From Polytrichum commune (Eukaryota > Streptophyta > Polytrichopsida > Polytrichales > Polytrichaceae): DNA of 64,000 nucleotides. The translations under genes and the position numbers were made by a program. Position 1 is the first letter of the stretch. Every line of letters starts with the position of its first letter. The stretch is taken from the NCBI GenBank assembly GCA_950295325.1, contig OX485806.1, positions 49,037,169-49,101,168 of the forward strand, read 5' to 3'. Of this stretch, positions 12,931 to 59,792 are shown in pieces. The notes under the pieces were generated by a model that made no database searches, was not told where the DNA came from, and was given only the letters and a program-made list of their open reading frames with translations.

Positions 12931-13088
12931 AGCATATGGGGCTTGACTCCCATACTTACCTGGCTCTCATTCCATTACCCTAGGACGAATAGGAATGAAT
13001 TGAGGGATCAACTCATCCTCTCTCCTCCACAACTTCTCATAATCTCTATCTATGTGCTCCATCTCCCTGGCCGCCACCTTAGCGGCTG

Positions 13089-13865: not shown

Positions 13866-14120
13866 AACCTCACTAATCTAAGAAGAAGAAGAACTCCGGT
13901 CTCCGGAGGAGGCCGGAGTAAATAAAGTGTCTGTTTGTAGGACATCCTAGGCCGTGCCTTACGGCACTGGCGTTAGATGTAGAACTACTTCGCCCTTTGC
14001 AGGACGTAAACACTATATCTAGTAACCAGTAGTAAGTTCCGATAGCCGGTTGTTATGTTTGGGGTAATTAGTGCAGTATGTGAATTCTATAAACTGTATG
14101 GTGATATCATGTGTAGGGAA
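13866..14120. other. Spacer between gypsy-1 and LINE remnant
   Basis: A purine-rich start (13877-13920) with a short CTCCGG inverted motif, then unassigned sequence. It might be gypsy-1 leader or LTR remnant, but no second copy is visible in the window. Confidence 0.3.
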
Positions 14121-19641: not shown

Positions 19642-21165
19642 GTGCATAGTGGCAAGCTTGCAGGTCACATGGACGGAGGAAGACTCCCTCTTAATGACAA
19701 GAGACGGCAACAACATCGTGGCGACTGTCTGTGGAGGAGGGAGCAAGAGAGGTCCACATCGTATAACCTGAAACAAATTCATTGCCCATGCTGCAAATGC
19801 AAAGGACGAGTTCAATGCTCTATTGCAAAAGTAAAAGACCATCTAATCAGAAATTGGAGGGAACCCACATTCAGAGTGTGGAGGGGGCCTGGAGAGAGGG
19901 ACGGCTCCGATGAGGAGTGGGAACAGGAGTTTAGGAGACCCTCAAGACCACATGACGGACACATCGACAAAGGGTTGGATATGCATGCCATGCTTGAGGA
20001 AACATTCTAAGAAATTGATGAGGCACCGGCCCACCCCCCTACATAGGAAGAAAAATTTGAGGACATAGTAATGGATGCATTCACAGTCGTCGATGAGCTG
20101 GCCAATGATGAAGTTCCACTTTCGGACAATGAGTCAGAGGATGAGCCTTTGGGGGAAAATGGTGATAGTATTGCAGAAGAAGACAATTATGGTGATCCTC
20201 ACGAGTTGGAAGAAGCCATTGAGGAGCTGTACCATGGAGCCCAATCTTCCATATTGGCAGCCACAATATTGATAATGACTTTGTGTACGATCCATGGTGT
20301 AAGCAACAAATTTGCGAACCAGTTTTTCACCCTCTTCCGCGAACACCTTCTACCCAGTGATAATATGTTACCCAAAAACCTTCATGCTGCAAAAGTCTTC
20401 ATTCAGAAATTAGGATTGAATTACAATACAATTTATGCATGCCAAACAAGTTGTGTTTTATTTGGAGGGCAATATGAAGGTGCCACCAGTTGTCCAAAAT
20501 GTAAGAAACCACATTACAAAGACGAGGCCAAAAAACAGAGGCTTTGGAAAGTACTTAGACAATTTCCCCTGATTCCAAGACTAAGACGTATGTTCCATAC
20601 ACCAACAATATCTAAACTCATGGTGTGGCATGCAAAGAACACAAGCACAGACGGATTGGTAAGACATCATTGTGATTCAAAGGCATGGAAACACGTCCAT
20701 GAAAATGTAGATTTTAGTTTTGGCCAGGAAGACCGTAACATTCACTTAGGAATGGCAGCTGATGGAGTGAACCCTTTCAAGTTGCAACGTACAACTTGGA
20801 GCACGTGGCCGGTAATGTTGTTGAATTACAACATACCCCCATGGTTGACTACGAAGAAAAAATTTATCATGTTGGCGCTGCTAATCCCAGGAAAAAAATC
20901 TATGACATCCCAATTTTTTGATGTGTACTTGGAACCATTGGTAGAGGAGTTGATGCAATTATGGAAGGATGTGGAAACTTATGACGTGCTCAAAGAGGTG
21001 GACTCAAGGGCTTTCAAACTTAGAGCAGTTTTGATATGGACCATACACGATTTTCCTGGTTATGGGACAGTTGCAGGTGTTGCACATCAGGGCTATGTGG
21101 CGTGTCTTGTGTGTGGGCCACATTTTAAAGGTGAACATTCTGTCGAACTTGGAAAGCAAACCTAG
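19642..21165 (+). pseudogene. CACTA TNP2-type transposase, N-terminal and catalytic part
   Basis: The first part has a Transposase-associated Cys/His pattern (IHCPCCKCKGR, VKDHLIRNW). An acidic linker follows, with two in-frame stops (TAA at 20008-20010 and TAG near 20044) that each fit a lost Gln codon. Then comes the Transposase_21 region: NQFFTLFREHLLP, CQTSCVLFGGQY, CPKCKKPHYK, VRHHCDSKAW, LGMAADGVNPF (first Asp), LLIPGKKS, and AVLIWTIHDFPGYG with a later Asp. The protein would bind element ends and catalyse cut-and-paste transposition. A TAG ends the frame at 21165, and coding similarity continues in another frame to about 21295. Confidence 0.85.
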
Positions 21166-21295
21166 CCTTACGAGGTCTTTTACAACCTGGTCCACGAATG
21201 GTGGTGATGAGGATTTCGAAAGTGTTCCGACGGATATGTGACAGTGTTTGGAACCCATTGGAGTTTGAAGCTCTACAAGCGGACATTCACAGAGC

Positions 21296-22504
21296 ATGGC
21301 ACTTCTGGAGATTCATATTCCTCTTTCTTTTTTTGACATTATGACGCATTTGCTAAATCACCTTGTCGATGAATTGGACATGTGTGGTCCTGTCTCCACA
21401 AGGTGGATATATCCTATTGAAAGATACATGAAAACATTAAAGCATTATGTGCGGAACATGGCGGAGGGTTATGCGAGGGATGAATGCCTAGGTTTCATCA
21501 CGGAATATTTACACAAGTTTGAAGTAGTTGATCGCCGAGTTTGGGATGCAGATGAGGAGTACGGAAATGCAAAGGAGGTGCTGGAAGGGGCAGGAACAAA
21601 GTACTTGATGAGACCAACATTGAGAGATGTTGCCCACCAATATGCTTTGACAAATTTATCCCTCGTGGCACCTTGGCATAGGTGATCCTGCTTATGTTTT
21701 TTTGATTGCACATTCATGTCTCAGTGTGCCCTGTTGTTTTGGAAAACATGATCGCCACTGAAAATGACTACTGGTTGACCAGGTGGATGAGTAGTGAATG
21801 AGTAGTGAATGACTAGTTGGATGTACATGCAATTGAAAGATGAACAAGAAAAAAATCCCAGCATTTTCACGTTTGAAGAATGGATTAAAGACGTAGTGTA
21901 CAATCACCCTATTGACCCAAACGATGAGGATGACATGGACATGGTTATGATGTGCAGCAGACCGTCAGAGTTAGCTACACGATATACGAGGATGAAGGCC
22001 TATGGAAACCACTTTCGGGTGGAGGACCAACAATCAATGACGCTAAAAACTTATGACCGCGGTGTTGCCTCTGTGTTTCACATGCCTTCCGTGGGTTTGG
22101 AGGAGGTGACATTGAACTATGTGGGAGTACTAAAGGATATACTTAAATTGAACTATGGGCCACTTCGTACACTTGTCATATTTTTTAGGTGTGAGTGGAT
22201 GAAGCAATTTGACAACTGGGGCAATCCTACATATGTAAGAGACGAGGCTGGATTCATGGTCGTGAATTTCTGCCACAAGGTTCCAAAGATGTTGGAGCCG
22301 TTCATATTTCCCAGCCAAGCGACACAAGTATTTTGGTCAGACGAAGTGCAAAAACCAGGGTGGAAAGTAGTTTTGGTGAAGGAGGCACGCTCCCAAAGAC
22401 ATCAACAGATGTCTTCATTACCACCACCGAAGAAGCGGATGGCATGCATTTGGCGAACCATGTGCCTCCCCCGCCCACCACATTGTCTTTGGTGGGAGCC
22501 ATAG
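21296..22504 (+). pseudogene. CACTA transposase C-terminal part (DUF4218 and DUF4216)
   Basis: 21296-21685 carries the DUF4218 block (IPLSFFDIMTHLLNHLVDEL, GPVSTRWIYPIERYMKTLK, RNMAEGYARDECLGFITEY). 21809-22504 carries the region up to DUF4216 (YGPLRTLVIFFRCEW, FMVVNFCHKVPKMLEPFIFP, ATQVFWSDE). Both are in the same frame, separated by about 120 bp with several stops and a GACTAGT cluster (21785-21825), which may be intronic. The frame differs from that of the TNP2 part, so the gene is broken or an intron separates them. Confidence 0.8.
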
Positions 22505-26849: not shown

Positions 26850-28780
26850 GGTCAATTCGGGCTTGCTATTTAATGTTATGCATGAGTTCCTTGGAGTTGC
26901 TCCAATTGAACCACGATCATTGTTTTTTTTCAGTATTCATTTGATCCATTAAGACCAAATTCAACTTGGTTCCTCCTACCATAGGAATCTTTGTCAATTT
27001 GAAATTCAACGTTTTGCCATCATGGCACATCACAAGCACACCGCAAGCGCACCGACTTGTGCCTTACATCTACCATGTGAGTTTCAAAGAAGGTGACCTT
27101 CACAATGACATGCATCTCATTTGCCTCATAGTGTGAAATCTTCACAAAAATCCAATGTCCCACATTAGAAGGTTACATGCATAGTCACCTCCTTTGCCTC
27201 ATGCAAGTTGCACTTTGCAAACCGCACCTTGACGAGTTTGTTTGCTCTACACGTCGACAAACCCCAACTTTCTTGTGAGTTTTTTGGCTCATGAAGGAGT
27301 GTGTTGCATATTTGCACCTACAATTGATTTTATAATGATAGATTCCTTACATAAATTTTTGATAGGAAAATTGCAAAATGTCAACCACTCATCAATAGCA
27401 TCACAACAAGATGATGGAATTTTAGTTGCATGCATAAGAACCATTTTGCACATTCCATCAACGAGAACTTGGAAATTAAATTAAAACTCCCCATCACAAA
27501 AATAAAAAATACATGTAAATAAACCAACACAATTGCCACACAATATGCACACTCCATATTAGTTCATAAACAAAGATTAAAAAAATCAATAATATCACAC
27601 ATACCTCCAAAACCTACCATAAAAACAAGGTGACAAAAAGGTTTGGCACAAACCATTGTTTTATCTCAATTAAAAACCATTCAAGGATAGGCCATTGGTC
27701 GTAATTCATTTCATGTTGGTCTTCACATAGCTACATTAGGCCATTTTACAAATCACATCCACTCAACGAGCTCCATTGGGATTTAACTTGGATTGGATTA
27801 AAAAAAACTCACATTACTCCCAACCAACAAGGAGCTTATTGTATGGTGTCCAATTATCACCAAAACATTCCCTTATACACTACAGGCTAAAGATATTACA
27901 ATCTCGGGCAACACCCAACAGACAAAATCCCAAGATACAAACTATTGTTTATGGGTATTGGTTAATATTGTAGTGTCTAGTATTTGCATAGGGTGAAGTG
28001 GTTCTACATCCAATGTCATCATCACTTAGAATGTGACCACATATGTTTAACAAACACACACTCTTTTCTTGTTCAATTGTTGTTGCTTTGAAACAATGGA
28101 TTCATCATATATCATAATTCATATGTTTTGTTATGTATGAAATTTAGTTGTGCTCTCGAGGAATATTCCAAACAAAATGATATTATATTTTAATGCTATC
28201 CCTATAGTTTTTGTATATTTAGGTGCTTCTGGTACATAATGATTTCACTATTTTTATGCACTTATAAATATGCAATGTTTTTTGTGTGAAAAGTTGTATG
28301 TATTTAATTTTGAGATGCACTTAAAATTTTGCAACTTGTCATTGATGTGATTGATGTGATCACATTTCCTTCTTGCATACTAAAACGTAAATTTTCATCA
28401 CAATCATCTCAATATGGCCCGTTAAATGTCATCATGTAAATTAATTATGCACCTCAATAATTACTTATCTGAATAACAAACAGACGTGACACTTCTAGAC
28501 CACTAGTTTAGACCGTTCGCCAATAGTGTACGTGACACTAAATACCGTAAATGGTGTAGTCGATGAGAGTGGCGATGGCGGAGGCGCAACAGCGAAGTTG
28601 AGAAACTCCGAAGCCACGAAGGAAGGGAGCGGAGGAGGGAGGGACGGGAGTGAGGCGGATGAACTGAACTGCTTTGGATTCTCCTCGCCTCCCGCAATGC
28701 TGCTCCTGCCACATTGATCGATTGTGTAAGTGAGTGAGTCAGGGCCGGGCCACCCACATTGATTGATTTTGTGCATGTGT
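26850..28780. other. Non-coding stretch upstream of the glycosylase gene
   Basis: AT-rich, no recognisable coding sequence up to about 28500. The last 300 bp become GC-rich and probably hold the promoter and 5' UTR of the gene that follows. No clear TATA box was identified. Confidence 0.4.
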
Positions 28781-28784
28781 AGTT

Positions 28785-31700
28785 TTGTGCAGATCGGTAA
28801 TGCATGCCGGGGGGGGGGGGGGGGGGGTTATGGGGTATTGGGGTGACGCGGATCGTTTGTTTGGGCGGAGCCTGAGTAATCATCATCGCAGCATGATGCA
28901 AATCTCGTCGGGGTCGTCGCGATGTGCAGGCGCCACGCAGGGGTGCGTTGGAGGACGAGGGGGCAGCGCCGTGGGCGACAAGATGTCCTCGGTGGTCACA
29001 CCCTCTGCAGCAGACAGACGGGGGGGTGCGGGAAATAATAAGGAGAGGGTGGCGACGACACCAACGCGACCTCCTTCTGCGACGCGCGCGTGCCGCGTGG
29101 GTGGTCTCGCGAATTTCAGTTCCGGGTCGGGGGGCAAGGCGAGCCCCGCAGCTGCGACGTCCACCAAAGCGTCGCCGAGGTCTTCGCCATCGCCATTGCG
29201 AACCGCCGCGGGAGCCCCTCGGCCTGCGTCGCCGTTAGGCAGCAGCAGGAGTAGTGGGTCGCCCCGTTTGAAGCCTGCTGCCAATGTGGCAATCCGGTCT
29301 GGATCCCCCGCACCTCCCAATTCTGTAAGCAACAACAATATCATCAAATCGCCATCGTCGTCTCTGTCTGCGTGGCCGTCCCGGGGCGAAACCAATGCGT
29401 CCTCATTACTGTCTGGGTTCTCTGGCCACTCGCTTTCGAAACCTGGTCGTGGTGCTGGTGTTCTAGTGAAGCAGCAATCTGCATCCTTAGCTCCAAGCAA
29501 TTCTTGTAATAAGGCTGTCCAGTCCTGTGTGGACAATGGGTTGCTGTCCACAAGACCCACTGGCAAGCCCGCTGCCAAGTCCCTCGTCTCACCTTCCGCC
29601 AAACTGGTTGCGCCTAGCACAGTACCCACCACCTCTGTCAGACAAACCAATTCCTTCGCAACGGCATCCTGCCCAAGTGGTAAAAAGGAAAACCATGACC
29701 TAGTGCCAGCAGCACGGAAAGTGGTGAAACCGTGGGCGTACCCGGAATGCTCAAAGATCAGGGCCGACTACAACTCAGATGCTCCCTCCCTCTCAGGGAA
29801 CAGTGGCGGAGCAGTGAGGAAGCCAATGTCACAGCAACAAGCGCAACGGCTGATGATTGCAGGGTTTAAACGAAGCCCCTCGGTGTCGTCTAAGCCAACC
29901 GAGTGCATTGTGCCCGAAGGCCTTCCTGTCTCCCCCAAAACCTTTGACTCCAAGAAACGGTGTGGCTGGATCACATCTCAAAGTGGTCAGTGCTTGTTAC
30001 AGCATTTCCCTGCCCTTGGGTCATTTACAGATATATGTAGATCGCGTATACAACCTCAATAGCCATTTTTGTCCATAGTTATCAGCTGAAATACTTGTTG
30101 ACTGGTATCGAACCTGAATGGATGCAATCTTCGTGCAATTTTATTTTGTAGTTTGTCTTCACGGCCTGCTAATATGCAAGATAATCTTCACTTCTTTCAT
30201 GTCTGGATCACATCGCAAAGCGGTCAGTGCTTGTTACAGCATTTCCCTGCCCTTGGTCATTTTCAGAGATATTTAGACTGTGCATACAACCTGCAACAGC
30301 CATGTTTGCCCATATTTATCAGCTGAAATGCCTGAACCTGAATGCAGTCTCTGCGCAGTACTGTTTTGTAGTTTTTCTCAATAGCCTGCTAATATTTAAG
30401 ACAATCGTCGCTTGTGTTATGGGCCCTCATGTGAAGTAATGATAAGAGGTGAATTAGTTCTTCGTTTTACTAATGTATTGATCTGTATTGAACAACTAAT
30501 GCAGATTTCTATCATGTTGCTTACCATGACACTGAATGGGGTGTTCCAATATACGATGACAAGTACATCTCTCTCCTTTTCTCCTCCACCAGATTGAATA
30601 CCTTTGTTTATTATTCAACCTTGTGTTCATCCAGACTTCATACTGATACATCTCAAGAGATTAGCCTTTGTACCTATCATTTAGTTTTACCATCTGCTAT
30701 CAAATGACACGAACACAGAAGAGACACTTCTTGCTTGTTCAGTAATAGGTTTTGTGTTGTTTCAGCTAAGGTACTTGGTCCTACGTCAATGTACATGATC
30801 CTCGAGATAAAGGCAGGAGCCTTGTCTTTGTCATTGTGGGTTCCACTGTTGTTTCACTTCCATTTAATCGTTTGGTACTGGATTTGCACATAGGTTTCTT
30901 TTTGAGTTGGTGGTGCTGCAAGGGGCACAGGCAGAATTGAGCTGGCCCACAATCCTTGCCAGGCGGAAAAATTTCAGGTTGTGCGCCTCTTTCTTAAAAT
31001 GTGATCAATGTTGTAGAGAACTTCTTGTAACTATACTCACTGTCAGCAATTGCAAGGCATGTCTTGAAGATGACTAACACAAGCAACTTGTGCGAGAACA
31101 GAGCAGCTTTTGTGAACTTTGAGCCAGCAGTGGTAGCCAATTTCGAGGAAAAGAAGATATTGTCTTTGAGAGCGGATCCCTCCATCTGCTTCCCTGAAGC
31201 AAAAATAAGAGGAGCTGTTGAAAATGCGGCACATGTTATCAAGGTTTGCTACCAAAAGCATGGTGCCTGTTGTCATATATCTTGTCATGATCGATATGTG
31301 AGTATCTTTCTGGATCTTGCACCACAGAAGTTATCATGGTCATAATCCAAGGCGCAATTCATGTTTCCTACTTTTCACTGTACTCTTGAGATATTGTGAC
31401 CATCATTTTATTAAAACTTGCTCACTTGTATATGTGGTAGCATATGTGAAAAGCTTGCATAGAGCTGTCTTTGCTTATAATTGAAAATGTGTTTAGGATA
31501 ACTCTAATACAATGGTGACGCTTCTCTGTCAGATAGTAGAGGAGTATGGCTCGTTCAGCAAGTTTCTATGGAGTTTTGTGAACCACAACCCAGTTGTGAA
31601 TCATCATAAGCTGGCAAAACAAGTGCCTGTCAAGACCCCTAAGTCGGAGGCACTGAGTAAGGAGCTTGTGCGAAGAGGGTTCCGGTTTGTAGGTCCGACG

Positions 31701-32054
31701 ACTATGTACTCTGTTATGCAAGCTGCAGGCTTGGTGAACGACCATCTTGTAACTTGCTTCAAATACCAGGAGGCGACTGCTGAGAGTGTGCCTCTGAAAG
31801 AGAGAGAGGAGGTGGTCGATTTGTGGCATTGTATCTCGATGCCTGAATGGAGGGGCCGACCAAAGGCGGTGGTGTTACAGGGCGGAGACTCTGTTATGTA
31901 TTTTATGGACGAAAAAAGGGATGCCATCAACGATGAACCTGTGTGGGCGGAGCTGCCCATGATTGAGGAGGTTAGAGAAGATGAATTAGAGAAAGGTGGG
32001 GAAGATGACGATATCCAAGATGGGTATATGGAATTTGAGATACCTGTGTGCTAA
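28785..32054 (+). CDS. DNA-3-methyladenine glycosylase I family protein (five exons)
   Basis: Helix-hairpin-helix base-excision-repair enzyme that removes 3-methyladenine from DNA; presumably nuclear. I assembled five exons: 28785-29985, 30505-30562, 30894-30977, 31102-31243 and 31533-32054. All introns are GT-AG and the phases agree, giving 668 codons with no internal stop. Conserved text matches bacterial TAG and its plant relatives: KRCGWITSQS (zinc Cys), VAYHDTEWGVP across exon 2 (zinc His, substrate pocket), FELVVLQGAQAELSWPTIL, VVANFEEKKI, IRGAVENA, FLWSFVNHNPVVN, RRGFRFVGPTTMYSVMQAAG and NDHLVTC (second zinc His and Cys). The first 390 or so residues are Ser/Ala/Pro/Gly-rich and poorly conserved. 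Translation from 28785 crosses a 19-G run, so the Met at 28893 (632 aa) is a good alternative start. The gene looks intact and is the only clear host gene. Confidence 0.9.
28809..28827 (+). repeat. Run of 19 G
   Basis: Homopolymer within the possible N-terminal coding part of the glycosylase gene. If it is coding it gives a run of Gly, and length changes would shift the frame. This favours the downstream start at 28893 or a 5' UTR location. The length may also be affected by sequencing error. Confidence 0.9.
29963..30420 (+). repeat. Tandem duplication of exon 1 end and intron 1 start
   Basis: About 29963-30200 and 30201-30420 are diverged direct copies. Both contain TGGATCACATC, a splice donor in the context GGTCAGTGCTTG, then CATTTCCCTGCCCTTGG and the same downstream intron text. 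The second copy reproduces the last codons of exon 1 (W-I-T-S-Q-S) and the donor site inside intron 1. Confidence 0.85.
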
Positions 32055-34640: not shown

Positions 34641-34650
34641 TGTTGATTGT

Positions 34651-34755
34651 GTCATGTAAATAGCGATCGTGTGTCACTGCAGCTCGAGTACCAACCACCA
34701 CTAACAAACAACACTAAAACATAGCAAAGTCACACATAAACAACACACCTCGATA
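34651..34755 (-). repeat. LTR block X, outer copy
   Basis: 105 bp matching 35093-35197 with three differences, all transitions. In element orientation it reads TATCGAGGTGTG at its start, against TGTCGAGGTGTG in the inner copy. It lies outside the left R block, where no LTR sequence is expected. Confidence 0.85.
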
Positions 34756-35197
34756 GAGAAGTAAGAGAGTAGAACACTCATAATAGCTCTAAATCTCTTT
34801 CTAAATGCACACAATTAGTCAAGCTATCTCTCACTCCACCAAGGGAGAATCCAAGAGTGTAAGTAGAGGGAGAAGAACTCAAGATTTATTGCAAAATCAT
34901 GCAATCTACACCTCACATAAGCTCTCTCCACACACTAACTCACAAGACTTGACTTGGCAAGAATGGCAAGCCAAGGAGGAGGCTCCTCACTTAGGAGCCT
35001 TGCTCTCCACATCTATATTCATCCATCCAAATCTAGATGGATGAAATCCAACGGATAAGATGCGACCGTCGACGCCGCATACCGTGATAGTTGTCGTGTA
35101 AATAGCGATCGTGTGTCACTGCAGCTCGAGTACCAACCACCACTAACAAACAACACTAAAACATAGCAAAGTCATACATAAACAACACACCTCGACA
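34756..35197 (-). repeat. 3' LTR (blocks X and R)
   Basis: In element orientation this LTR starts with TGTCGAGG at 35197, directly after the polypurine tract, and ends at about 34756 with ACTTCTC. The R part (35094-34756) matches 40064-40403 with about 14 differences in 335 bp, of which about 12 are transitions. The start in TG next to a polypurine tract supports X plus R (about 440 bp) as the true LTR. Confidence 0.75.
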
Positions 35198-35210
35198 TGC
35201 CCCCTCTCAG
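35198..35210 (-). promoter_or_regulatory. Polypurine tract
   Basis: Element-strand sequence CTGAGAGGGGGCA, immediately followed by the LTR start TGTCG. It is the expected primer site for plus-strand synthesis during reverse transcription. Confidence 0.65.
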
Positions 35211-35634
35211 CTGACTATGGAGTCCCGCCAAGCAGCTAGGACCAACGCCAATCTAAAGGGCATGGATAATGAAAGATTGCTCCGCAACTAACTAGTTTGG
35301 TAAACGTTATTCAAAGGAATTGTAGGTTGGGTGCAAGGTGAGCCCCATCCTTAATCGCCTCTGATGTTTCGCCATCAGATCCCAAAGAATTAAATCCACC
35401 GCCTCATGTTGATTGCGTCTCTAAGCCATAACTCCTCATTTTCTATTTGGGCAGGCACAAGATGATGAAAACCACACATGATTATTGAGTACGATTAGTG
35501 GAAGCACCAAGTACCGAAGATCCTCGACAGCGAGGACAACTCCATTATCCAAATGGTAGAGAAGTCAAGGGTGGCCTCAAGCATGTCATGTGCCAACCGC
35601 GTTGACACTGATCATACAAGAGCATAGTAGCCAT

Positions 35635-38628
35635 TCATTTCTTCTCTCCACACACAAAACATGGAAGACCCTCTGGCACGACGGTCAGTTCAGGATGAAC
35701 TGTACCCTCAATAGGTAGATGATATGGGGCACAGTTTTTGGAATGCTCACGACATTCCCTGCCATTCTTGCCTTCCAACAACAACAAACCACTCGGCAAT
35801 ACCTCCTTCACCTGAAGGATAGTACGCCCCGCCCTGACATTTAATGTCGTAGGCGCCTCACGTTGGAGATAGACATAATTCCCCTGTCGGAATCTCCGCA
35901 ACTGAGGTCGGTAAGCACCACTGCGAATGCGTGCATAACCCAATGTGTCACGGTGCTGAGCAATGGACAAATTCTCCATGGCCATAGGCATGGCTCTCTG
36001 GAAGAATTGAGCCCGCTCCTGTAAACACTCTGTCCAAATGTTTGGGTCATCCAAGTCCACAACATGAGCTAACTTTTCCCGAATAGAACTCGGGAGAATA
36101 TGCTCACGTCCATACAATAACTGATACGGACTATAGGATGCCAAAGAGGCATGCATACTAAATCGATAGCCCATAGCAATCCAAGGCAACATAAGGTCCC
36201 AATCCCGGTGGCTTCCCCGAAGTAATCCATACTTCTTCAAGCCACACTTGGTTGTCTGAACAACCCATTCAGCCAAGCCATCTGCCTCCGGATGATCCCG
36301 AGAGGTGGTACGGTGATCTATGAGCGCCTTAGTGCACAACTCCTTAAAAACACCAAGGAACTCCCTTCCTTGGTCCGTCAACACCTCAGTCGGTGCTCCA
36401 AAACGTCCTAACACACGATCCAAAAAAGCGGCCGCGGCCAACTCTGCCGAGTTTTGGGGTAGAGCAACAAGCTCAATCCACTTGTTAAAATGCTCCACCA
36501 TCACCAAAACGTACTTTGCTCCACGTGGTGTAACCACCAATGGCCCTGCAAAGTCCAGCGACCAACGGTAGCCCAATCCCATGATAGGTAAGGGCTATAA
36601 CTGAGGTGATAAGGTGTTAAAGCTAGACCTGACCCGGTCACAAACTTCACACCTCCCGACATAGGCAGCCACCTGCTGATACATGCCAGTCCACCAATAT
36701 TGGCCACGCAACATCGAATGTGTCCTGCGTATGCCAAAATGGCCAAGTTCCTCGTGCACTTGTCGCACCAAAGAGGCCCTCTGATCCGGCCTAGGAACAA
36801 TACGCCTTGTGCCATCCGGCCACAATCGAAATAACAAACCGTTCTCCCAACGGAACTTTGTTACTCGATGTCCAATCCTATCCCTTTCCATTGCCAAAAT
36901 AGACAAAGGAAAGGTACCCTGTTGCAACTTATGCAATACGGGAAGATCCTCCCATATATCTGCAATAGCTTGAGGCCGATCAGTCTCATTATCCGAGCCC
37001 TGTATCGGAATCTCAACAGATGCACTAGAAAATAAAGTGAGGTAGGCAGCCGCGTGCCAACCTGGAACCGCCTCTCGATCACAATCTCCATGCCACCTGG
37101 CCCCAGTCAAGTCCTCATCTGAAGGACTTGGATTGCGTGAGAGTCCATCTGCATCCATGTTGGTAATCCCTGCACGGTGTACCACCTCAAAGTCATATTC
37201 CTGGAGTAACAAAGCCCACCTAGTAAGCTTGCCAGTAAGCTTATTCGACTCCATGAGCCACCGTAACGGCTGATGGTCAGTCACTAAAGTAAAGTGCTGA
37301 CCATAAAGATACGGCCGAAAATGGGCAATAGCCCATACCGCCGCCAATGCTTCTCCCTCGTAGGATGAATAATTAGCCTCCGCCGTGTTATTGCTTCGCG
37401 AAGCGTAAGCAACAACATACTCCCGACCAAAATCATCCTTCTGAGTGAGAACTGCTCCCAAACCCAATGAACTCCAATCCGTATGCAACTGGAAAGATTT
37501 GGAAACATCTGGACGTCGAAGCACCGGAGCCGTACCCAGTTTCTGCTTCAATGTCTCAAACGCCTGTTGTTGCTCACAATCCCAAGTCCACGGTTGGTCC
37601 TTGCTCGTGAGAATGGTGAGAGGCTTGGCGATCAAGCTAAAGTTCTTGACGAATCGCCGATAGTAATTCGCCAAGCCCAAGAAAGCACGAAGTCTCGGCA
37701 CATCAACCGGTGCCGGAATCTTCTGCAAGGCGTCCACCTTAGTTTGTTGTATCCCAAGACCTCCTAGAACAATCATATGCCCTAGATATGCCAGCCGGTC
37801 ATGGAAAAACTTACACTTGTCGTGGTGCAAGCGCAATCCCCACCGCTGCAACCGTTTAAAAACGGCTTGCAGATGCCTCACATGCTCCTGTGGTGTTGTG
37901 TTGAAGATGATCACATCGTCTATGTAACACCGAGCAAAGGGCAAGCCAGAGAGAACCTGATCCATCACCCGCTAAAACTCAGCGGGTGCATTTTTCAGGC
38001 CAAATGGAAGAAACTTCCAATGATAAAGTTGATCTTTCCCATCTTGATCAACTCCCCAAAATGCGGTCTTCACCCGATCTGCCGTAAATAATGGAAGTTG
38101 GTGATATCTGGATCTCAAGTCCAAGGTGCTAAAGACCCGAGAAAATCCGTTGGCATCGAACAACTCCTCCGGGATCGGCATAGGATACCGATCCGACTTG
38201 GTCTTCCGATTAACTGGACGGTAATCCCCACACATCCGCTTCTCCATCCAATTGCCAAAGATATCCTTCTTCGATGGCATAACCGTAGCACAAGCATATT
38301 CCCCGTTGGAAAGTTTGATTAGTCCTGCTGCCAAGAGCTCTCGGCAATGAGCCTGAACGCCAATCCGCTCGGAAACACTGAGCCTGTAAGGTCTCCGAAA
38401 AATGGGATGGTCGTCTTCCAACTGAATGTGGATGGGTTTTCCTTTATAACCTTCAAGATCCTGAAGGCTAAAAACAAAACATCTACGGTACGAGCGAATA
38501 AATGCTCGTACCTTCCGTGCCTCAGCACCAGTGAGACGAGGGCCTAATTCAAGTGGCTAATCATCAAACTCTGTGGTCTCCCTTTCCACTAGAAGAGAGC
38601 CACCTGGTGCTGGCACGGACTCTAACTG
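35635..38628 (-). pseudogene. Methyltransferase-element reverse transcriptase, RNase H and integrase
   Basis: Continuation of the methyltransferase frame. In order: linker and RT N-part (KPIHIQLEDDHPIFRRPYRL), RT core (FGLKNAPAEF, then the catalytic YIDD at about 37926-37915), RNase H (FQLHTDWSSLGLGAVLTQ, SSYEGEALAAVWAIAHFRPY, LVTDHQPLRWLM, DADGLSR), integrase H2C2 finger (HEELGH, CEVC) and core (SLDFAGPLVV, EVLTDQGREF, PEADGLAEWVV) giving the D, D, E residues. It ends in TGA at 35635 with no chromodomain seen. Stops at 38559-38557, 37974-37972 and 36597-36595 are all TAG. The one at 37974 replaces the Gln that normally follows NAPA-F in RT, so at least that one is a mutation and not a recoding site. 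Confidence 0.9.
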
Positions 38629-39888
38629 CTAATGAGAGGAGGGGGCATTAACCATGCCCCCAACCTCCGTGTTAGCAATAGAGTCCATCTCCTCTTCATC
38701 ACCACCAATATGTGATGATGAAGCCACCACCGGAGGTGAAGAAGCCAAAGCAGTATAAACTCGTTGAGCTCGGAGCTCCTCCATTACCTGCTGCTCGAAT
38801 CGAAAGATTCGTTCGGCTTCTCCAACCCTGACATCAATTCCCTCCTTCATGGATGTGGACCGTTGTGCCCCCTGACCAAAATCCTCTGCCCCCAGAGACA
38901 ATAACTGATCACCATGATGCCGTTGCAATGCAAGGCATAAACTAACAGTCCACACTATGGTATGGAGATCCATGGCTTGGCCCAATACGAAGCATCGTTG
39001 GCCCTCAGAAAGGCCAGGAGCTGCGGTGGTACCAGTGCGGAAGCCCATGGCACGCTCTCGTTCATCAGCCAAGGGTTCGGTGTGGGTTTTGGTGTTAGCA
39101 TCCCACACCATACCCGGCCCCCGATCGCGGAAGGCGAATGACTGTGGAAACGTCATAAAGGTGGGAAAGGCCCTCCCTGGTGCCCCCACTTTGTTGACTA
39201 ATGCCAACGGGGGTAAATCATCCCGAACAACCGGCAAAGAGGTCCGGTTTGGATCCAAGATGTTATCCACCTTCTGATCAAAAGGTGGAGGTACTATAGA
39301 AATTGCTGCGGCCAAAGTAGATGACGGTGCGAGGTTGGTCCAAATCCACTGAGGCCGGTGGGCATAAGAACCAATGCTCGCGGCATCTACAAAAATGGGA
39401 TCTTCAAGGTGTTGACGAACATAACGATCGCCTTTCAACACCTTGTCCGGAGAGTCTCCCAACAATGGTACATTCTCGAAGATATACCTTGGCGGGGTAT
39501 GTTGGTGGGAAAACCACCACTGCATGAGGCGGATGAGGTCCCAAAATAGACTAGACCTGGGATCCTCTAGACCTCGGCCGGCTCCAACACGTGAATGGCC
39601 CTGGCATGGCCATCCTGCAATTACCATATCCACCGGACCCAAGTGTCGTAAGTCGGCCTCACTGATGAGTGTAACATCATGAGGGAGACGTGAAAAACAC
39701 CCACGAATGGCAGTTGGAGGTAACTGCTGGGGGTACAATACCATCAGTTGGTGAAGATGGTGACGAGTCACACGGGTGGACACTTGAGAGTTGTCCACAT
39801 AGACATACCGTCTAACCGTGAGGCCAGCCTCCAATATGGCCGCTAAGCCTGTGCCGATGCCCCCAAACAGTTCCACCAAAGTAATTCA
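38629..39888 (-). CDS. C5 DNA (cytosine) methyltransferase domain in retrotransposon frame
   Basis: This 416-codon open stretch carries the motifs of a C5 methyltransferase in normal (unpermuted) order. They are motif I ELFGGIGTGLAAILEAG (residues 3-19), motif IV AGWPCQGHSR with the catalytic Cys at 92, motif VI FENVPLL (Glu 135), motif VIII YAHRPQWIWTNL (171-182), ERERAMGF (273-280) and motif X CFVLGQAMDLHTIVW (296-310). RSSLFWDLIRL after the Cys and the ERE-MGF block are closest in style to DNMT3/DRM proteins. Plant DRM is circularly permuted and this is not, so DNMT3-like is the better guess. All catalytic residues are present. It lacks ADD, PWWP, UBA or BAH domains. It ends at a TAG and was probably fused to the downstream RT. 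The stop upstream at 39888 and the lack of an ATG before motif I mean it cannot start cleanly here. Confidence 0.9.
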
Positions 39889-40053
39889 AAATGATGTGCA
39901 CACATCACAAGCACATATTTTTCCTCCTTGTTTCTCCACGAATCCGCAATGTTTGTCTTCCTCCACTCCAAAATTTCGCAACCACTTGTCTTCACACTCT
40001 TTCTCGAGTGTTGGAGCTCAAGATTTGAAGAAAAGAGAAGAAATCATCCACAT
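39886..40053 (-). pseudogene. N-terminal leader of the methyltransferase polyprotein
   Basis: An ATG at 40053-40051, about 11 bp inside the LTR, opens a frame in register with the methyltransferase. It contains about 56 codons interrupted by TGA at 40020-40018 and again at 39888-39886. Between the two stops the text is charged and Cys-containing (ECEDKWLRNFGVEED, KICACDVC). Both TGA codons could be former CGA. If so, the polyprotein began next to the LTR and had no room for gag. No relative is recognised. Confidence 0.55.
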
Positions 40054-40063
40054 TCTTGCCAAG

Positions 40064-40403
40064 TGAGAAGTAAGAGAGTAGAACACTCATAATAGCTCTA
40101 AATCTCTCTCCAAATGTATACAATTAGTCAAGCTATCTCTCACTCCACCAAGGGAGAATCCAAGAGTGTAAGTAGAGGGAGAAGAACTCAAGATTTATTG
40201 CAAAATCATGCAATCTACACCTCACACAAGCTCTCTCCACACACTAACTCAGAAGACTTGACTTGGCAAGAATGGCAAGCCAAGGAGGAGGCTCCTCACT
40301 TAGGAGCCTTCCTTTCTACATCTATATTCATCCATCCAAATCTAGATGAATGAAATCCAACGGATAAGGTGCGGCCGTCGACGCTGCATACCGTGATAAT
40401 TGT
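40064..40403 (-). repeat. 5' LTR, R block only
   Basis: In element orientation it ends ACTTCTCA at 40064, followed after 2 nt by TGGCAAGAATG, a plausible tRNA primer-binding site. It lacks block X at its outer end, so about 105 bp of the LTR are missing on this side. Beyond 40403 the sequence is unrelated to X. Confidence 0.8.
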
Positions 40404-55499: not shown

Positions 55500-58385
55500 C
55501 GGGAGCGGGTTAGGGAACGGCATAACCGGGAGCAAAGGGCCGGGTAGGGATTCCGGCCACGCCAGCAGGGAGGCCTGTGCCGGGGGCCACAGTCGCCGGG
55601 CCTGTGCCGGAAAGACACAAACTTCATCCATAGTTTTATGTTCCCCCCCCCCCCCCGCGAAGGGGTCCGAGTCCTCCCGCGCACAGAGTGCTCTGTGCCA
55701 TCGCACGCTCGGAGGGTTGTGCGGCCTCCTGTACACTCTATCGAAATCGTGGCAACAACTACGGGAGATGGAGCAAGGGGCGGCAATCGACAGCGAGCTC
55801 CGCGGCCTGCATTTCGGGTGCAGAATTCCTCCATCTGTCCCCGCGCTTGTGCGCGGGCTAGACTTTCTTTCCCCCTGTATGTCGTCTTCTTCTGTTGTTA
55901 ACGCTCCGCCGTGGTCGCCTGCTGCGCCTCCGCCAGAGCACATCTCCGCCTCTCCCCTCCATCGGCCAATTCTGTCTCCGAAATTTCCATTCTGCTCGCA
56001 CAATGCAAGCGGCTCTGTGGTCATTTTTCGAGAGGCCTTGGCGCATTGTCTGCGCAGGGTTTAGGGTGTGGTGCACCGAATGGAGACTGTTCAACCCTTC
56101 CAGCCTTCTTGCAGTCGGGGTCGGGATATCTGCAACCCAGCAATGAATTTCCTGGTTATCGGCATGAATCCCTGCCTCTCTGTTTTCGTTGACCTCCAGT
56201 TCGGGCATGTGTGTTGTGATTGCCAGCACCTCCCATCTGCACATTGGGGTCCTGAATTCCTACACCTGTGCTGTGCCAGTGTCAATTTAGGAATGCACAT
56301 CCCTGTGGAATCTGGCATTCGGTTCTCACATCGCGAATGGTTGTGCTCGCAGGGCGGAGGACTATTGGCGCGGGTACAAACTTTTTTGCTTTGCTTATTA
56401 TTCGCATTCTCTGGAGCACGTTCGGGAGTTCCAGGAGTCCAAACTCGGTGCGTGTGCTTCCTCTCTCCCCTGTTCTTCCAGTTTTCTTCCTGTAAACTGC
56501 AGCTTTGCTTCGAAGTTGTTTATGGGTTGTTGATGGCTCCGCATTGGTTTTCGTCGTGCAGGACAACTTGTATGGGCCCGTCATGCCGGCCGCCCTTGCC
56601 CCTCTGCACATGCCATCCGGGTCACTTGTATGCAACTTCTCCCCCTCCTGGAGATGTATTGCAGGTGGGAGTTGGAAGAAGACTGCAGCAATCTCGAAGC
56701 CTTCTTGCTCCGCTTCGACTCTGAGGCCGAGCTCGAGTCGTATGAGCTCGGTCGTGCTCTTCTGCACATGGTTCGGGACGATGGTGGCGGGTTGCCACCG
56801 TTGCCGCCACGAGTACATCGCCAAGAGCCGCATGAGGTCGTCGAAGACCCCTTCTATGCTGTGTGCGAGCAGCTGGCCGCAGTTGACTCTGCGTTTCGCA
56901 ATCTCCAGCCACAGGTGCTTGCAGTTGTGGGTTACATTGGACAATTCATAGTTGTCGGGAACATTGAGTCCGCCTTCGGGCGCTGTTGTTGTTCGTGTCC
57001 GCCCTGCAGTTGCGCACCGCTTGCGGTGCGCCCATTTTGCTGCAGTTTGTTAATACAAACCTCCTTGCGGTGGCTTTCCTGCGAGCCACCTACCATCATC
57101 CTCCACATTTCGCCTGTTTTGCCAGCTTACGCTTGCCTTCGGAAATACTCCTGACTGTGTTTGCTTTGCAATTTGCCGCTATCTTCCTTTGTTGTCCCCT
57201 GCATGCACTAGTGTTTGCTTTGGCTTGTGGCATTTCGGTGCCCTGCACAGTTGATCGGACTCGGTTTGTGTGATGGTTAGCGGAATAGTTGGTTACGAGC
57301 TTGCTGCTGCCTCCATTTGTCGTTGGCATTGTGTGTGCGATTGTCTGTGCGTTCGTTGACAGATTGTCTGTGCATTACCGTCCCATCCTGCTTTCAATGT
57401 CAATCCAGCCACTACCTCACATTGCAAGGCATTGGCTCGTGTTGTTTTGCAACATATGTTGTTCATATTGTTATTATTTTGTGTGTGGGCTTCGCGGTCT
57501 GGCCCTCTTTGTTGGAGACCAGAGACAAAATTATTGTGTTCGCCGGAGTCTGTGTGTTTGCGGTTCAATTTCACCGAGCTCTTCAAAAAGTTTGCCAGCC
57601 CTGCTCCGCATTTTGAGTGTCATTCATTTTGCTTTCGCGAATGCGCACATCACTTCGATGTCCACAACCACAATGCTCGACCATATCCCCATTCATTTTG
57701 GACACCAGACAAAATTGCCTTCAAACAAATTCATCAACACTGTGCATACACACTGGCTCTTCAATGCAAGCATGTTCCAACATTTGGTCATAAATACCCA
57801 GGTGCAGTACATGGCGCGCTGCATGCTTGATGCATGAACGACACTACTATCAATGTTGCCACTCAACTGCGAGTGGCAGCCATGAGGCAGCCGCATTACT
57901 AGTTCCCAGTTATGACCACCGCCTATGCTGGTGCTTGCACTATGTTTGTAGCGTCCTAGAACTAAAATGTTGTTGCCGCTGGTGCAATTGCCATTGTTTG
58001 GAGAATGTATTCGACATGGCTGCGCCATGGACTAGATAGGCCTCCTCACAAACTTGTGTGTGCCTGAAGGTCCGAAAAACAGCGGGTCGTGGCCCAGCTC
58101 AGTCCGACCCCGATGTGGAACCTCCCCCATCGACTCGCCGGGCTCTCGATGTACCTGCCTCTGTGCGGGAAGTTCCAGCTCCTCCACCCATGCCCTCCGC
58201 TGCAACCCCCCCGCTGGAGGCTCGTCTTGGCCTGTATTCACCGCTACCGCCAGCACCAAAAGTTTCGGGTGTTCGGCCACTGCCGCCATTCGGAGCAGGA
58301 ATCAACATCCCTCTGCACCCCCCCCCCCCTCGAGAGTGAAGGGGCAATCAGTACACCGAAAATCGCCTCGGCCATTCCCGTAATC
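55500..58385. other. Long 5' region of the Harbinger element, no gene recognised
   Basis: About 2.9 kb of moderately GC-rich sequence upstream of the transposase. Open frames up to 218 codons exist on both strands (for example 56068-56724 plus, 56282-56944 minus), but they overlap each other and show no domain. I regard them as a by-product of composition. A run of 14 C lies at 55643-55656. Confidence 0.4.
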
Positions 58386-59792
58386 ATGGCATGCATTAAC
58401 ATGTCCCTTGCAATTATGCACATGTACACAACAACATCCGAGGCAAGCAGAACACAACTTTCATACAAAAAACGCTCAAAAAGATGGACCGAAGACCATG
58501 GTGTGCACGCGGCACCCAACCCTTTTGCAAGGCATGCGCCCGAGGAGGACGAGCTGGAGCACCCTCATACCAAAGAGCTATTTGATCTGCTTGCTTGGCA
58601 CGTCCATGTGTTGGATGCCAAGTGGTATGTCAAACCACGCTCCACATGCTGGTTTGAAGAGTACTTGTTCAACATTTACACTCCCGACATGTTCTACGAC
58701 ATTTTGCGAATGCGAAGGAGAACATTTGACCGTTTGGTGCACGACCTGCGCCCATTCATTGAAGGACAACATACCCATTGGCGACAACCTGTTGGAGTAG
58801 AGAAAAAAGTTGTTGTCACACTATTCAAGCTAATGCATGGTGTTTCAATACCTCTAGTTGCCGACAAGGCAGCCATAGGCAAATCCACCGTGCACCAAAT
58901 CTTGAGGCAGGTTTGCTCCGCCATAAGCAACAATTTTGGCCACCTAATTGCTTGGCCGGCCGGACGGAGGTTGGCGAGAGTGACATCCGCGTTCCAATCC
59001 AAGCAATGGTTCCCGAACTGTATCGGAGCCATTGATGGATCCCATGTGTATATTCAAGCGCCGCCCAACAGTATTGTCGCGGCCGACCACCGCAACCGGA
59101 ACAAATCGTTCTCTATTTTATTGCAGGGCGTGGTGGATTCCAAATGCCCCTTCACATCAGTTAACATAGGGCAGCCAGGGAGTTTGCACGACAGCGCACA
59201 CTTCAAGTCATCTGAGCTATATCGTAAGGTGGAGGATGGAATTATGGGAGGATTCCATGACGACCCACTAACATGGCCGGCGGGACTCCCTTTTCCGCCC
59301 TACATTGTCGCAGACCGCGGGTACCCTCTCTTGAGCTGGTGCATAACACCTTTCAAGACGGGACCCATGGGGACACCTCTCACGCAGGAGGAAGCATGGT
59401 TCAATCGCAAGCATTCTTCAACCCGTATGAGCGTTGAACGGGGGTTTGGGATACTCAAAGCAAGATTCAAGGAAATTGGGTCCAAAACCTCTCTCAAACT
59501 AGAATTCTTACCCACCGTGGTGCATTCATGTTGCGTGTTGCACAACATCCTGCTTGCGAGCAAGGATCGTACTCTAGACCAAATTCTAATGGACTGCCAT
59601 TTGCCGTCAATGGATGTCAACGACACCGCCCGTGCTCAAGAGGACGAAGCTTTCCACCCTCCAAGGCCAATGGGCCTTGTGAGCGAGGAAAGAGCGTTGT
59701 TGGAAGGGAAGATGGCGAGGGAGGACATTCTAGACTACCTTGTGCGCATCCAAAATGCTGATCACGTTGCTAGGCATCCACAAAGAACATGA
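58386..59792 (+). CDS. PIF/Harbinger DDE transposase
   Basis: Cut-and-paste transposase of the DDE_Tnp_4 family, acting in the nucleus with its Myb-like partner. From the Met at 58386 it has 468 residues, close to family size. The frame is open further upstream to 58089, but that part is Pro-rich and unconserved. It has an N-terminal helix-turn-helix-like part (MFYDILRMRRRTFDRLV, AIGKSTVHQILRQVC). The catalytic core follows: IGAIDGSHVYIQAP (first Asp), FTSVNIGQPGSLHDSAHF (second Asp in HDS), YIVADRGYPLLSWCITPF and SVERGFGILKARFKEI (Glu). There are no stops or frameshifts, so it may be functional. The last 23 bp overlap the end of the opposing Myb-like gene. Confidence 0.9.
   Translation: MACINMSLAIMHMYTTTSEASRTQLSYKKRSKRWTEDHGVHAAPNPFARHAPEEDELEHPHTKELFDLLAWHVHVLDAKWYVKPRSTCWFEEYLFNIYTPDMFYDILRMRRRTFDRLVHDLRPFIEGQHTHWRQPVGVEKKVVVTLFKLMHGVSIPLVADKAAIGKSTVHQILRQVCSAISNNFGHLIAWPAGRRLARVTSAFQSKQWFPNCIGAIDGSHVYIQAPPNSIVAADHRNRNKSFSILLQGVVDSKCPFTSVNIGQPGSLHDSAHFKSSELYRKVEDGIMGGFHDDPLTWPAGLPFPPYIVADRGYPLLSWCITPFKTGPMGTPLTQEEAWFNRKHSSTRMSVERGFGILKARFKEIGSKTSLKLEFLPTVVHSCCVLHNILLASKDRTLDQILMDCHLPSMDVNDTARAQEDEAFHPPRPMGLVSEERALLEGKMAREDILDYLVRIQNADHVARHPQRT

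What the first reader, a model, noticed from the sequence alone, without database searches (positions are those of the whole stretch)
34649..40403. LTR retrotransposon with a DNMT3-like cytosine methyltransferase at the front of its polyprotein
All main C5 methyltransferase motifs (I, IV with PC, VI ENV, VIII, ERE-MGF, X) are visible in unpermuted order, in the same reading frame as and upstream of a Ty3/gypsy RT-RNase H-integrase. LTRs flank the unit. Retrotransposon capture of methyltransferases is reported for Klebsormidium and Symbiodinium, but the arrangement here (methyltransferase first, no gag) and the likely land-plant host could be new. An element that writes methylation on DNA could affect its own silencing or protect its DNA.
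Basis: partly seen in the sequence, partly recalled or inferred. Interest (0 to 1): 0.92.

Follow-up and report, generated by a model that had tools for sequence, protein, structure and literature searches.

The report
Plant jumping gene carrying DNA methyltransferase
This is a worn, shortened copy of a retrotransposon that carries its own DNA-methylating enzyme; relatives occur in liverworts, moss and green algae, and the best-preserved one points to unusual ways of being translated, copied and inserted.

Summary
"MTase first, no gag" is a deletion: an intact relative (L001; ORF2 84% identical) encodes gag-like-protease-MTase in ORF1 and RT-RNase H-integrase-PHD finger in ORF2. The ends are not plain LTRs but split repeats (B-coding-A-B-A), the DIRS-like order published for Klebsormidium KnitGypsy-Dnmt3. 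The MTase is no chance host insert: 201 of 252 related proteins from three searches carry it, with hosts including Marchantia, Calypogeia, Riccia, Sphagnum, Closterium, Klebsormidium and volvocine algae. In MTase and pol trees one well-supported branch separates elements with the MTase before RT from those with it before integrase. New inferences, from two DNA sequences: a conserved UAG in readthrough context between MTase and RT; a covarying 13-14 nt self-primer; insertion ends at a palindromic A|B junction. This copy is defective: no gag or protease, five further in-frame stops, one motif VIII arginine lost. MTase activity is untested; the Klebsormidium enzyme was inactive in yeast (inconclusive, published). 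New variant of a known kind.

The parts
34646..34649 (.). Target-site duplication, left copy (ATTG)
   Evidence: Identical to 40399-40402, directly abutting the TGTC...GATA ends
34650..34755 (-). Repeat A, 3' terminal copy
   Evidence: Direct repeat of 35092-35197, 98% over 104 nt
34756..35089 (-). Repeat B, 3' copy
   Evidence: 96% identical to 40065-40398, 13 differences of 334
35090..35091 (-). Dinucleotide at the palindromic A|B junction (CGACA-AC-TATCACGG)
   Evidence: Aligns with L001 CGACA-GC-TGTCACGG
35092..35197 (-). Repeat A, internal copy, next to the polypurine tract
35198..35207 (-). Polypurine tract (AGAGGGGGCA)
   Evidence: Purine run directly before A, also in L001
35527..35661 (-). 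Decayed PHD finger at the end of ORF2, two in-frame stops
   Evidence: PF00628 E 4.8e-4, below its curated cut-off, on 35548-35634; intact PHD in L001 ORF2, E 4.3e-10
35686..36696 (-). Integrase (H2C2 zinc and DDE core), one in-frame stop
   Evidence: PF17921, PF00665; custom HMM
37096..37611 (-). RNase H
   Evidence: PF17917 E 2e-38
37648..38445 (-). Reverse transcriptase, one in-frame stop
   Evidence: PF00078 on both pieces
38629..38631 (-). Conserved UAG between MTase (ORF1) and RT (ORF2), followed by CAGUUA; predicted readthrough site
   Evidence: Same place and frame in L001, UAG-CAAUCA; 12 of 15 window-type MTase tails end in the same alignment column; background 6 of 1666 TAGs in the window
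38632..38922 (-). C-terminal tail of the MTase region (mostly low confidence, one helix)
   Evidence: AF2 model
38923..39885 (-). DNMT3-type cytosine methyltransferase domain
   Evidence: PF00145; DNMT3A/B by profile and fold
39886..40050 (-). Leader remnant; the gag and protease region is missing between here and the MTase
   Evidence: No gag/PR match in the window by tblastn; present in L001
40051..40064 (-). Predicted primer-binding site, complementary to repeat B
   Evidence: 14-nt complement, 0 of 5000 shuffles
40261..40274 (-). Predicted self-primer within 5' B (probable start of the RNA)
   Evidence: covaries with L001
40065..40398 (-). Repeat B, 5' terminal copy
40399..40402 (.). Target-site duplication, right copy (ATTG)

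Best explanation
A defective copy of a Ty3/gypsy-type retrotransposon family of green plants that carries a DNMT3-type cytosine methyltransferase. The intact member seen as DNA (L001) encodes ORF1 = gag-like region, protease, MTase and, past a UAG in the same frame that is conserved in the window, ORF2 = RT-RNase H-integrase-PHD finger. Because the MTase lies ahead of the stop it should be made in gag-like excess, freed by the protease, and packaged in the particle (inferred). There it would most likely methylate CG sites of the new cDNA, so that the copy enters chromatin already marked (inferred). The PHD finger on integrase probably reads the H3 tail and steers insertion, as a chromodomain is thought to do in chromoviruses (inferred). 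First-strand synthesis is probably self-primed: RNA starting inside B folds back on the site just after B (covariation shown; priming inferred). By the logic of reverse transcription the LTR is A+B, yet the inserted unit runs B-coding-A-B-A with a 4-bp duplication, so integrase probably cuts at the palindromic A|B junction, perhaps of a circle with two LTRs (structure shown once here; mechanism inferred). This copy lost gag and protease and could not move on its own.
For: Domains in one frame. DNMT3 class by sequence (E 4e-28, then DRM 2e-14, HhaI and DNMT2-type about 2e-8) and fold (the 50 Foldseek hits listed are all DNMT3 structures). Intact relative L001: ORF1 1346 aa without stops over the contig join, UAG-CAAUCA, ORF2 1047 aa in frame, PHD E 4.3e-10. 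Window ORF2 versus L001: 83.6% over 1038 aa in one match. 12 of 15 window-type MTase tails end in the window's stop column, three end earlier, none runs past. RNA after the stop folds better than shuffles (z -3.4 and -2.8). Self-primer: 14 and 13 nt, 0 of 5000 shuffles each, three changed positions all compensated. Purifying selection: dN/dS about 0.13 on the MTase and 0.06 on ORF2 (dS saturated). Catalytic Cys kept in 134 of 138 and Glu in 151 of 159 relatives with a residue there. Duplication and ends. Published Klebsormidium element: same repeat arrangement, Gypsy domains, DNMT3 (PMC5890265, section 9). SymbioDIRS-Dnmt3 MTases methylated CG in yeast (section 10).
Against: Only two DNA sequences of the family were available (window and L001), so readthrough, self-priming and the unusual ends rest on few cases. 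L001 cannot show its own insertion ends: the contig closes on itself. In the same published yeast test the MTase of the closest described relative, KnitGypsy-Dnmt3, gave no methylation, nor did SymbioLINE-Dnmt; the authors call this inconclusive because human DNMT3B also failed. The window MTase has Q where 153 of 169 relatives have R in motif VIII, so this copy may be inactive. Nine proteins in the pre-integrase pol clade have no MTase between RNase H and integrase, so it is not essential there. The gag region of L001 has a CCHC knuckle but no Pfam match, and its protease match (20.5 bits) is under the curated cut-off. No activity, expression or methylation of this family was tested here.
Confidence: 0.68

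Rival explanations
1. An ordinary Ty3/gypsy element into which a host DNMT3 gene piece fell by chance in this one copy.
For: This copy lacks gag and protease and has several in-frame stops.
Against: Natural ORFs join the MTase to PR, RT, RNase H or INT; 26 of 257 sequences examined show it directly after PR or before RT. MTase and pol trees split the same way; L001 is intact.
Confidence: 0.02
2. The repeats are a rearranged locus (unequal recombination between tandem copies, loss of 5' A), not the true inserted unit.
For: Seen at one locus only; a tandem A-B unit with deletions could give B-int-A-B-A. A 4-bp match of the flanks has a 1 in 256 chance.
Against: The unit is flanked by a 4-bp duplication and its ends are the sequences that meet at the A|B junction in L001. 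The same arrangement is reported for Klebsormidium.
Confidence: 0.25
3. The MTase is an RNA-binding or structural fusion partner of gag, kept for particle assembly and not for DNA methylation.
For: It sits at the gag side of the stop in L001; it diverges about three times faster than ORF2 (dN 0.306 against 0.105); the K. nitens relative showed no DNA methylation in yeast (inconclusive).
Against: Catalytic residues are kept in nearly all relatives compared; SymbioDIRS-Dnmt3 MTases methylate CG in yeast.
Confidence: 0.24
4. The stop after the MTase is a true end, and ORF2 is made by re-initiation at a nearby start codon, not by readthrough.
For: P0148, an intact relative, begins its RT ORF, by eye, a few residues after the stop position.
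Against: Both available DNAs keep the frame across the stop and keep UAG-CAR-YYA although the bases differ.
Confidence: 0.2

Closest known systems
KnitGypsy-Dnmt3 of Klebsormidium nitens (PMC5890265)
   Same: DNMT3-type unpermuted, intronless MTase in a Gypsy-type coding region; DIRS-like order of repeats; purifying selection on the MTase
   Different: Paper places the MTase in the Pol ORF; in L001 it ends ORF1 before a conserved UAG. PHD finger, self-primer and volvocine relatives do not occur in the sections read (6, 9, 10, 11 and abstract). Its figure was not seen.
SymbioDIRS-Dnmt3 and SymbioLINE-Dnmt of Symbiodinium (PMC5890265)
   Same: Retrotransposons with a cytosine MTase; split repeats in the DIRS type
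   Different: Tyrosine recombinase or LINE machinery; here a DDE integrase and Gypsy RT
Tf1/Sushi and plant Tcn1 chromoviruses (PMC6317226 passages)
   Same: Predicted self-priming from the element's own RNA
   Different: They carry a chromodomain; here a PHD finger and an MTase
Orchid Ty3/gypsy elements with an m6A demethylase domain (PMC9289625 passages)
   Same: Gypsy element that gained an RNA-mark enzyme
   Different: Different enzyme, placed in an additional ORF, in Phalaenopsis orchids

Membership tests
DNMT3 methyltransferase | Sequence and fold nearest DNMT3, motifs in unpermuted order | tested here: met
   Profile best hits DNMT3A/B/C; the 50 listed fold hits all DNMT3 structures; motif order read from the ORF
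DRM methyltransferase | Permuted motif order | tested here: not met
   Order is unpermuted; DRM chains matched only the first third of the domain, E 2e-14
Host plant DNMT3 (DUF3444 type) | Tree position inside host DNMT3 genes | not tested
   Genome search did not complete; no plant host DNMT3 sequence was in hand
Ty3/gypsy retrotransposon | RT-RNase H-integrase order with H2C2 and DDE integrase | tested here: met
Ty3/gypsy retrotransposon | Two equal LTRs bounding the inserted unit | tested here: not met
   B at one end, A-B-A at the other, duplication outside; one locus
DIRS retrotransposon | Split direct repeats | tested here: met
   one locus
DIRS retrotransposon | Tyrosine recombinase | tested here: not met
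   DDE integrase found instead in window and L001
KnitGypsy-Dnmt3 | MTase in the Pol polyprotein ORF | tested here: not met
   In L001 the MTase ends ORF1 and a UAG separates it from RT
KnitGypsy-Dnmt3 | Tree position with K. nitens MTases | tested here: inconclusive
   P0066 (K. nitens) lies outside the pre-integrase clade (100/99), as does the window, but groups with Closterium only at 86/29; not shown that P0066 is a published copy
Chromovirus | Chromodomain after integrase | tested here: not met
   Pfam (E up to 0.01) finds PHD and no chromodomain in L001 ORF2, P0148, P0220 and P0179
Tf1-type self-priming element | RNA 5' end complementary to the site just after the 5' repeat | tested here: inconclusive
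   14/13-nt complement with compensated changes is there; that it is the RNA's 5' end was not tested

The most novel reading that the evidence does not exclude
An ancient green-plant lineage of retrotransposons in which a DDE integrase inserts from a cDNA circle, cutting at a palindromic site inside the LTR (A|B), so that integrated copies have DIRS-like split repeats. The element makes a gag-linked DNMT3-type methyltransferase in bulk by leaky termination, to mark its own cDNA, and self-primes its reverse transcription. The MTase has travelled with the pol genes across streptophytes and chlorophytes with a single change of its place in the element.
Probability: 0.32. Interest if true: 0.85.

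Novelty: new variant of a known kind. Interest (0 to 1): 0.66.

Why it matters
Retrotransposons that carry the enzyme used to silence them were described for dinoflagellates and one charophyte as independent captures. The spread found here (liverworts, moss, zygnematophytes, volvocine algae, many environmental samples) points to an older, persistent association, although direct descent and transfer between hosts were not told apart. It offers an annotated gene in a tractable plant (Marchantia MARPO_0008s0049: CCHC knuckle, protease, MTase) on which the purpose of self-encoded methylation could be tested. The split repeats with a DDE integrase would also make an old question testable: whether circular cDNA can be a real substrate for a retroelement integrase.

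Tried and rejected
Chance insertion of a host gene: rejected by natural fusions and by L001. Alternative genetic code (internal stops read as amino acids): not supported, because L001 has sense codons at those sites; the host's own code was not tested. Viral or phage origin nearby: phage tblastn gave 161 records, none at 60% identity and none covering 80% of the query; the ten listed lie at 23-30% identity and up to 53% coverage. The single-protein scan of viral contigs found none; with an alignment 16 viral-contig loci gave partial MTase matches (37 to 218 residues, 28-59%), not followed. The five other genome-contig loci (four Streptomyces, one Saccharothrix) gave partial matches of 38 to 106 residues, not followed. 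A search for the A|B junction and for the ORF2 profile in viral contigs found no relative. Host identity: not resolved; only a plant-type DNA-3-methyladenine glycosylase exon. Direction of the MTase's change of place: not resolved; the DNMT3A outgroup branch is very long, and the quick and careful trees root it on different sides. tRNA and Rfam scans of the window were empty.

Literature: nine searches. No listed title or passage seen describes this family in bryophytes or volvocines, or a PHD finger with an MTase in Gypsy. Stop-codon readthrough in retrotransposons was not searched for. The library holds open-licence papers only, so this is weak evidence of absence. Seen of each paper: PMC5890265 abstract, passages, sections 6, 9, 10, 11; PMC12344493 passages and section 5; PMC6453930, PMC8226279, PMC9033089, PMC9289625, PMC6317226 and PMC2864245 passages; the rest listings only.

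Full report
What is there. The element lies on the minus strand, 34650-40398 (5,749 bp), flanked by ATTG on both sides (34646-34649 and 40399-40402). Reading 5' to 3' on that strand: repeat B (334 bp), a 179-nt leader, an MTase ORF (38632-39885), a TAG, RT (two pieces), RNase H, integrase, a decayed PHD finger, a purine tract, then A (106 bp), B, A. The coding pieces keep one frame. No second copy of the element was found in the window.

The methyltransferase. Pfam gives PF00145 (E 1.4e-11). A profile of 41 sequences matches DNMT3A/B/C best (E 4e-28), then DRM (2e-14), HhaI (1.6e-8) and DNMT2-type enzymes (1.8e-8 to 1e-7). An AlphaFold2 model (mean pLDDT 82.7, about 95 over the domain) has DNMT3 structures as all 50 Foldseek hits listed, of 178 with E up to 0.001 (TM by target up to 0.82). 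Motif names are recalled. In an alignment of 177 sequences (the window and relatives with over 40% of the domain) the motif IV Cys is kept in 134 of 138 relatives with a residue there, the motif VI Glu in 151 of 159, and the second motif VIII Arg in 153 of 169. The window has Gln at the last, as does P0014; P0001 and P0003 have Trp and Glu.

The family. The MTase ORF found 74 proteins, an alignment of 16 found 76, and the integrase-PHD part of P0087 found 208 of which 120 were listed; 252 distinct proteins in all, of which 201 carry the MTase and 123 the PHD finger by home-made HMMs. The first two searches used the MTase itself, so 201 is not a frequency. Named hosts: Calypogeia fissa, Sphagnum troendelagicum, Riccia sorocarpa, Marchantia polymorpha, Closterium (two strains), Klebsormidium nitens, Pleodorina, Volvox (two), Tetrabaena and Haematococcus. 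Most of the rest are metagenomic. Among the 252 proteins and five window pieces (257), orders were: MTase alone 96 (the window ORF included); PR-MTase 20; MTase-RT 5; MTase-RT-RH-INT-PHD 1; RT-RH-MTase-INT-PHD 31; RH-MTase-INT-PHD 10; MTase-INT-PHD 31; RT-RH-INT-PHD 11; INT-PHD 34; the remaining 18 in smaller classes, four of them window pieces and three proteins without a match. Many are pieces cut by contig ends. P0047 is a deletion fusion of MTase to integrase.

Two places, one split. 115 MTase domains were thinned at 72% identity to 71. In the careful tree (70 rows with DNMT3A and L001; UFBoot/SH-aLRT) one branch (100/99) separates 49 rows (47 pre-integrase, 2 of unknown place) from all 13 pre-RT rows, with K. 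nitens and three liverworts on the pre-RT side. Three long-branched pre-integrase rows were dropped before this tree. With them, the quick tree puts the 12 pre-RT rows and 7 of unknown place together at SH-aLRT 96, but leaves five pre-integrase rows next to that group at weak support. Sphagnum was not a row in either tree. The tree of RT+RH+INT+PHD (51 rows, quick) splits 10 rows from 41 at SH-aLRT 100. The 10 are the window, four pre-RT rows, four ORFs that begin within 126 residues of RT, and P0219, which has no MTase in its ORF. The 41 are 32 pre-integrase and 9 with no MTase between RNase H and integrase; three of these nine ORFs start at RT or RNase H, so an upstream MTase cannot be excluded there. 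So MTase and pol seem to have descended together, with one change of place; its direction is open because the outgroup is far away. K. nitens P0066 groups with Closterium only weakly (86/29), and whether it is one of the published KnitGypsy copies was not tested. If it is, the capture is older than the K. nitens lineage named in PMC5890265 (section 9), or the element moved between hosts.

An intact relative. A scan of bacterial and archaeal genome contigs with an alignment of 21 window-side MTase proteins gave six loci; one, L001 (9,285 bp, CADCWO010000201.1), is a whole element in a contig labelled cyanobacterial, presumably contamination. Its ends repeat 127 bases, so it closes to a 9,158-bp circle, as an assembler can make of a repeat-bounded element. 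ORF1 has 1346 aa without stops: a gag-like region recognised by position and a CCHC knuckle (no Pfam match), a protease (LDSGAQ; Asp_protease_2 20.5 bits, under the cut-off of 24.3), and the MTase. A relative, P0015, passes the protease cut-off (26.2 bits). ORF2 has 1047 aa: RT, RNase H, integrase, PHD (E 4.3e-10). The window's ORF2 matches it at 83.6% over 1038 aa in one piece, its MTase at 60% over 380 aa, and no gag or protease match (E up to 1e-3) exists in the window. Apart from the UAG next to the MTase, the five stops in the window's ORF2 (three before and two in the PHD finger) stand where L001 has sense codons.

The stop between MTase and RT. In L001 ORF1 ends with UAG CAA UCA and ORF2 follows in the same frame; in the window the same place reads UAG CAG UUA. 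Both fit CAR-YYA, the tobacco mosaic virus type of leaky context (recalled). That context follows 6 of 1666 TAGs in the window and 2 of 190 in L001, these two sites included. Of 56 database proteins with over 40 residues after the MTase, 15 have window-type or L001-type tails (BLASTP E up to 1e-5); 12 of the 15 end in the same alignment column as the window and L001, three end earlier, none runs past. Whether each such end is a stop codon or a contig end is not shown by the protein alone. Other branches (P0036, P0093, P0127, P0179) run from MTase into RT without a stop, so the feature is not universal. RNA around and after the stop folds better than shuffles (z -3.36 and -2.84; 0 and 1 of 200 shuffles as stable). 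Readthrough is thus likely but inferred.

Self-priming. The first 14 nt after 5' B are complementary to a stretch within B. In L001 13 nt are complementary at the matching places; within those 13, three positions differ between the two elements and all three are compensated (read from the sequences printed). None of 5000 mononucleotide shuffles of either leader reached the observed length. Self-primers are reported for Tf1/Sushi and plant Tcn1 elements (PMC6317226, passages). That survey's main text does not contain words beginning with PHD or methyltransferase.

The ends. In L001 the order is purine tract, A, B, leader, as at the window's 3' side, and the A|B junction aligns: TTTACACGACA-RC-TRTCACGG. 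A purine tract before A and a primer site after B imply, by standard reverse transcription, an LTR of A+B. Yet the window insertion begins with B and ends with A, with a duplication outside. That is what opening a two-LTR circle at one A|B junction would give. PMC5890265 states for K. nitens that the repeats are arranged as in DIRS although the domains are Gypsy (Fig. 4 legend). A rearranged locus remains possible (rival 2).

Selection and decay. Between window and L001 dN/dS is about 0.13 for 375 MTase codons and 0.06 for 1033 ORF2 codons; dS is saturated, so these are rough. The MTase diverges about three times faster at amino-acid sites. The two B copies differ at 13 of 334 sites, 11 of them transitions, and the A copies at two of 104; CpG is lower in the window MTase than in L001 (0.62 against 0.79). 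Both are consistent with methylation and decay, not proof.

Function. I commit to cDNA self-methylation in the particle, with the PHD finger steering integration. The PDB chains nearest the L001 PHD finger by sequence include CHD4, Cph2, PHF12, UHRF1, KMT2C/D, KDM5 and PHF21A; that several of these read the unmodified H3 tail is recalled. PMC5890265 (discussion read) proposes cDNA methylation for its elements. Its yeast test found CG methylation by two SymbioDIRS-Dnmt3 MTases, but none by SymbioLINE-Dnmt or KnitGypsy-Dnmt3, which the authors call inconclusive because human DNMT3B failed too (section 10). Nothing of this was tested on the present family here.

What is known and what is new. Known: MTase-bearing Gypsy in Klebsormidium with DIRS-like repeats, restated in PMC12344493 as LTR Copia and DIRS (section 5). 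Not found in the nine searches listed: presence in bryophytes, zygnematophytes and volvocines; two positions that split with the trees; PHD finger; ORF1 placement with a leaky UAG (readthrough itself was not searched); covarying self-primer; the A|B junction as insertion end.

Noticed in passing
58068-60936: A DDE_Tnp_4 ORF (574 aa, +) beside a convergent, slightly overlapping Myb/SANT ORF (388 aa, -): an apparently intact PIF/Harbinger pair.
   Followed up: no
20047-22504: Transposase_21 and DUF4216 ORFs: a CACTA-type transposon.
   Followed up: no
7915-13877 (-): A second, decayed Ty3/gypsy element; two stretches match the ORF2 of L001 at 26-30% identity.
   Followed up: no
28767-32054 (+): Host-type gene with a DNA-3-methyladenine glycosylase exon (31497-32054, PF03352, E 3.5e-31); the only clear host gene among the ten ORFs scanned in that call.
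   Followed up: no
L001 and window 38632-39885: The MTase evolves about three times faster than ORF2 at amino-acid sites although both are constrained.
   Followed up: partly
P0145, P0151, P0155, P0158, P0164, P0177, P0201, P0219, P0224, P0227: PHD-Gypsy proteins with no MTase found in the ORF; P0224 (Haematococcus) lies beside an MTase-bearing one from the same alga, which suggests loss or a gene-model gap.
   Followed up: partly
L001 (CADCWO010000201.1), P0005, P0186: Retrotransposon sequences filed under cyanobacterial, Obscuribacterales and Spirochaetia MAGs: likely eukaryotic contamination.
   Followed up: no
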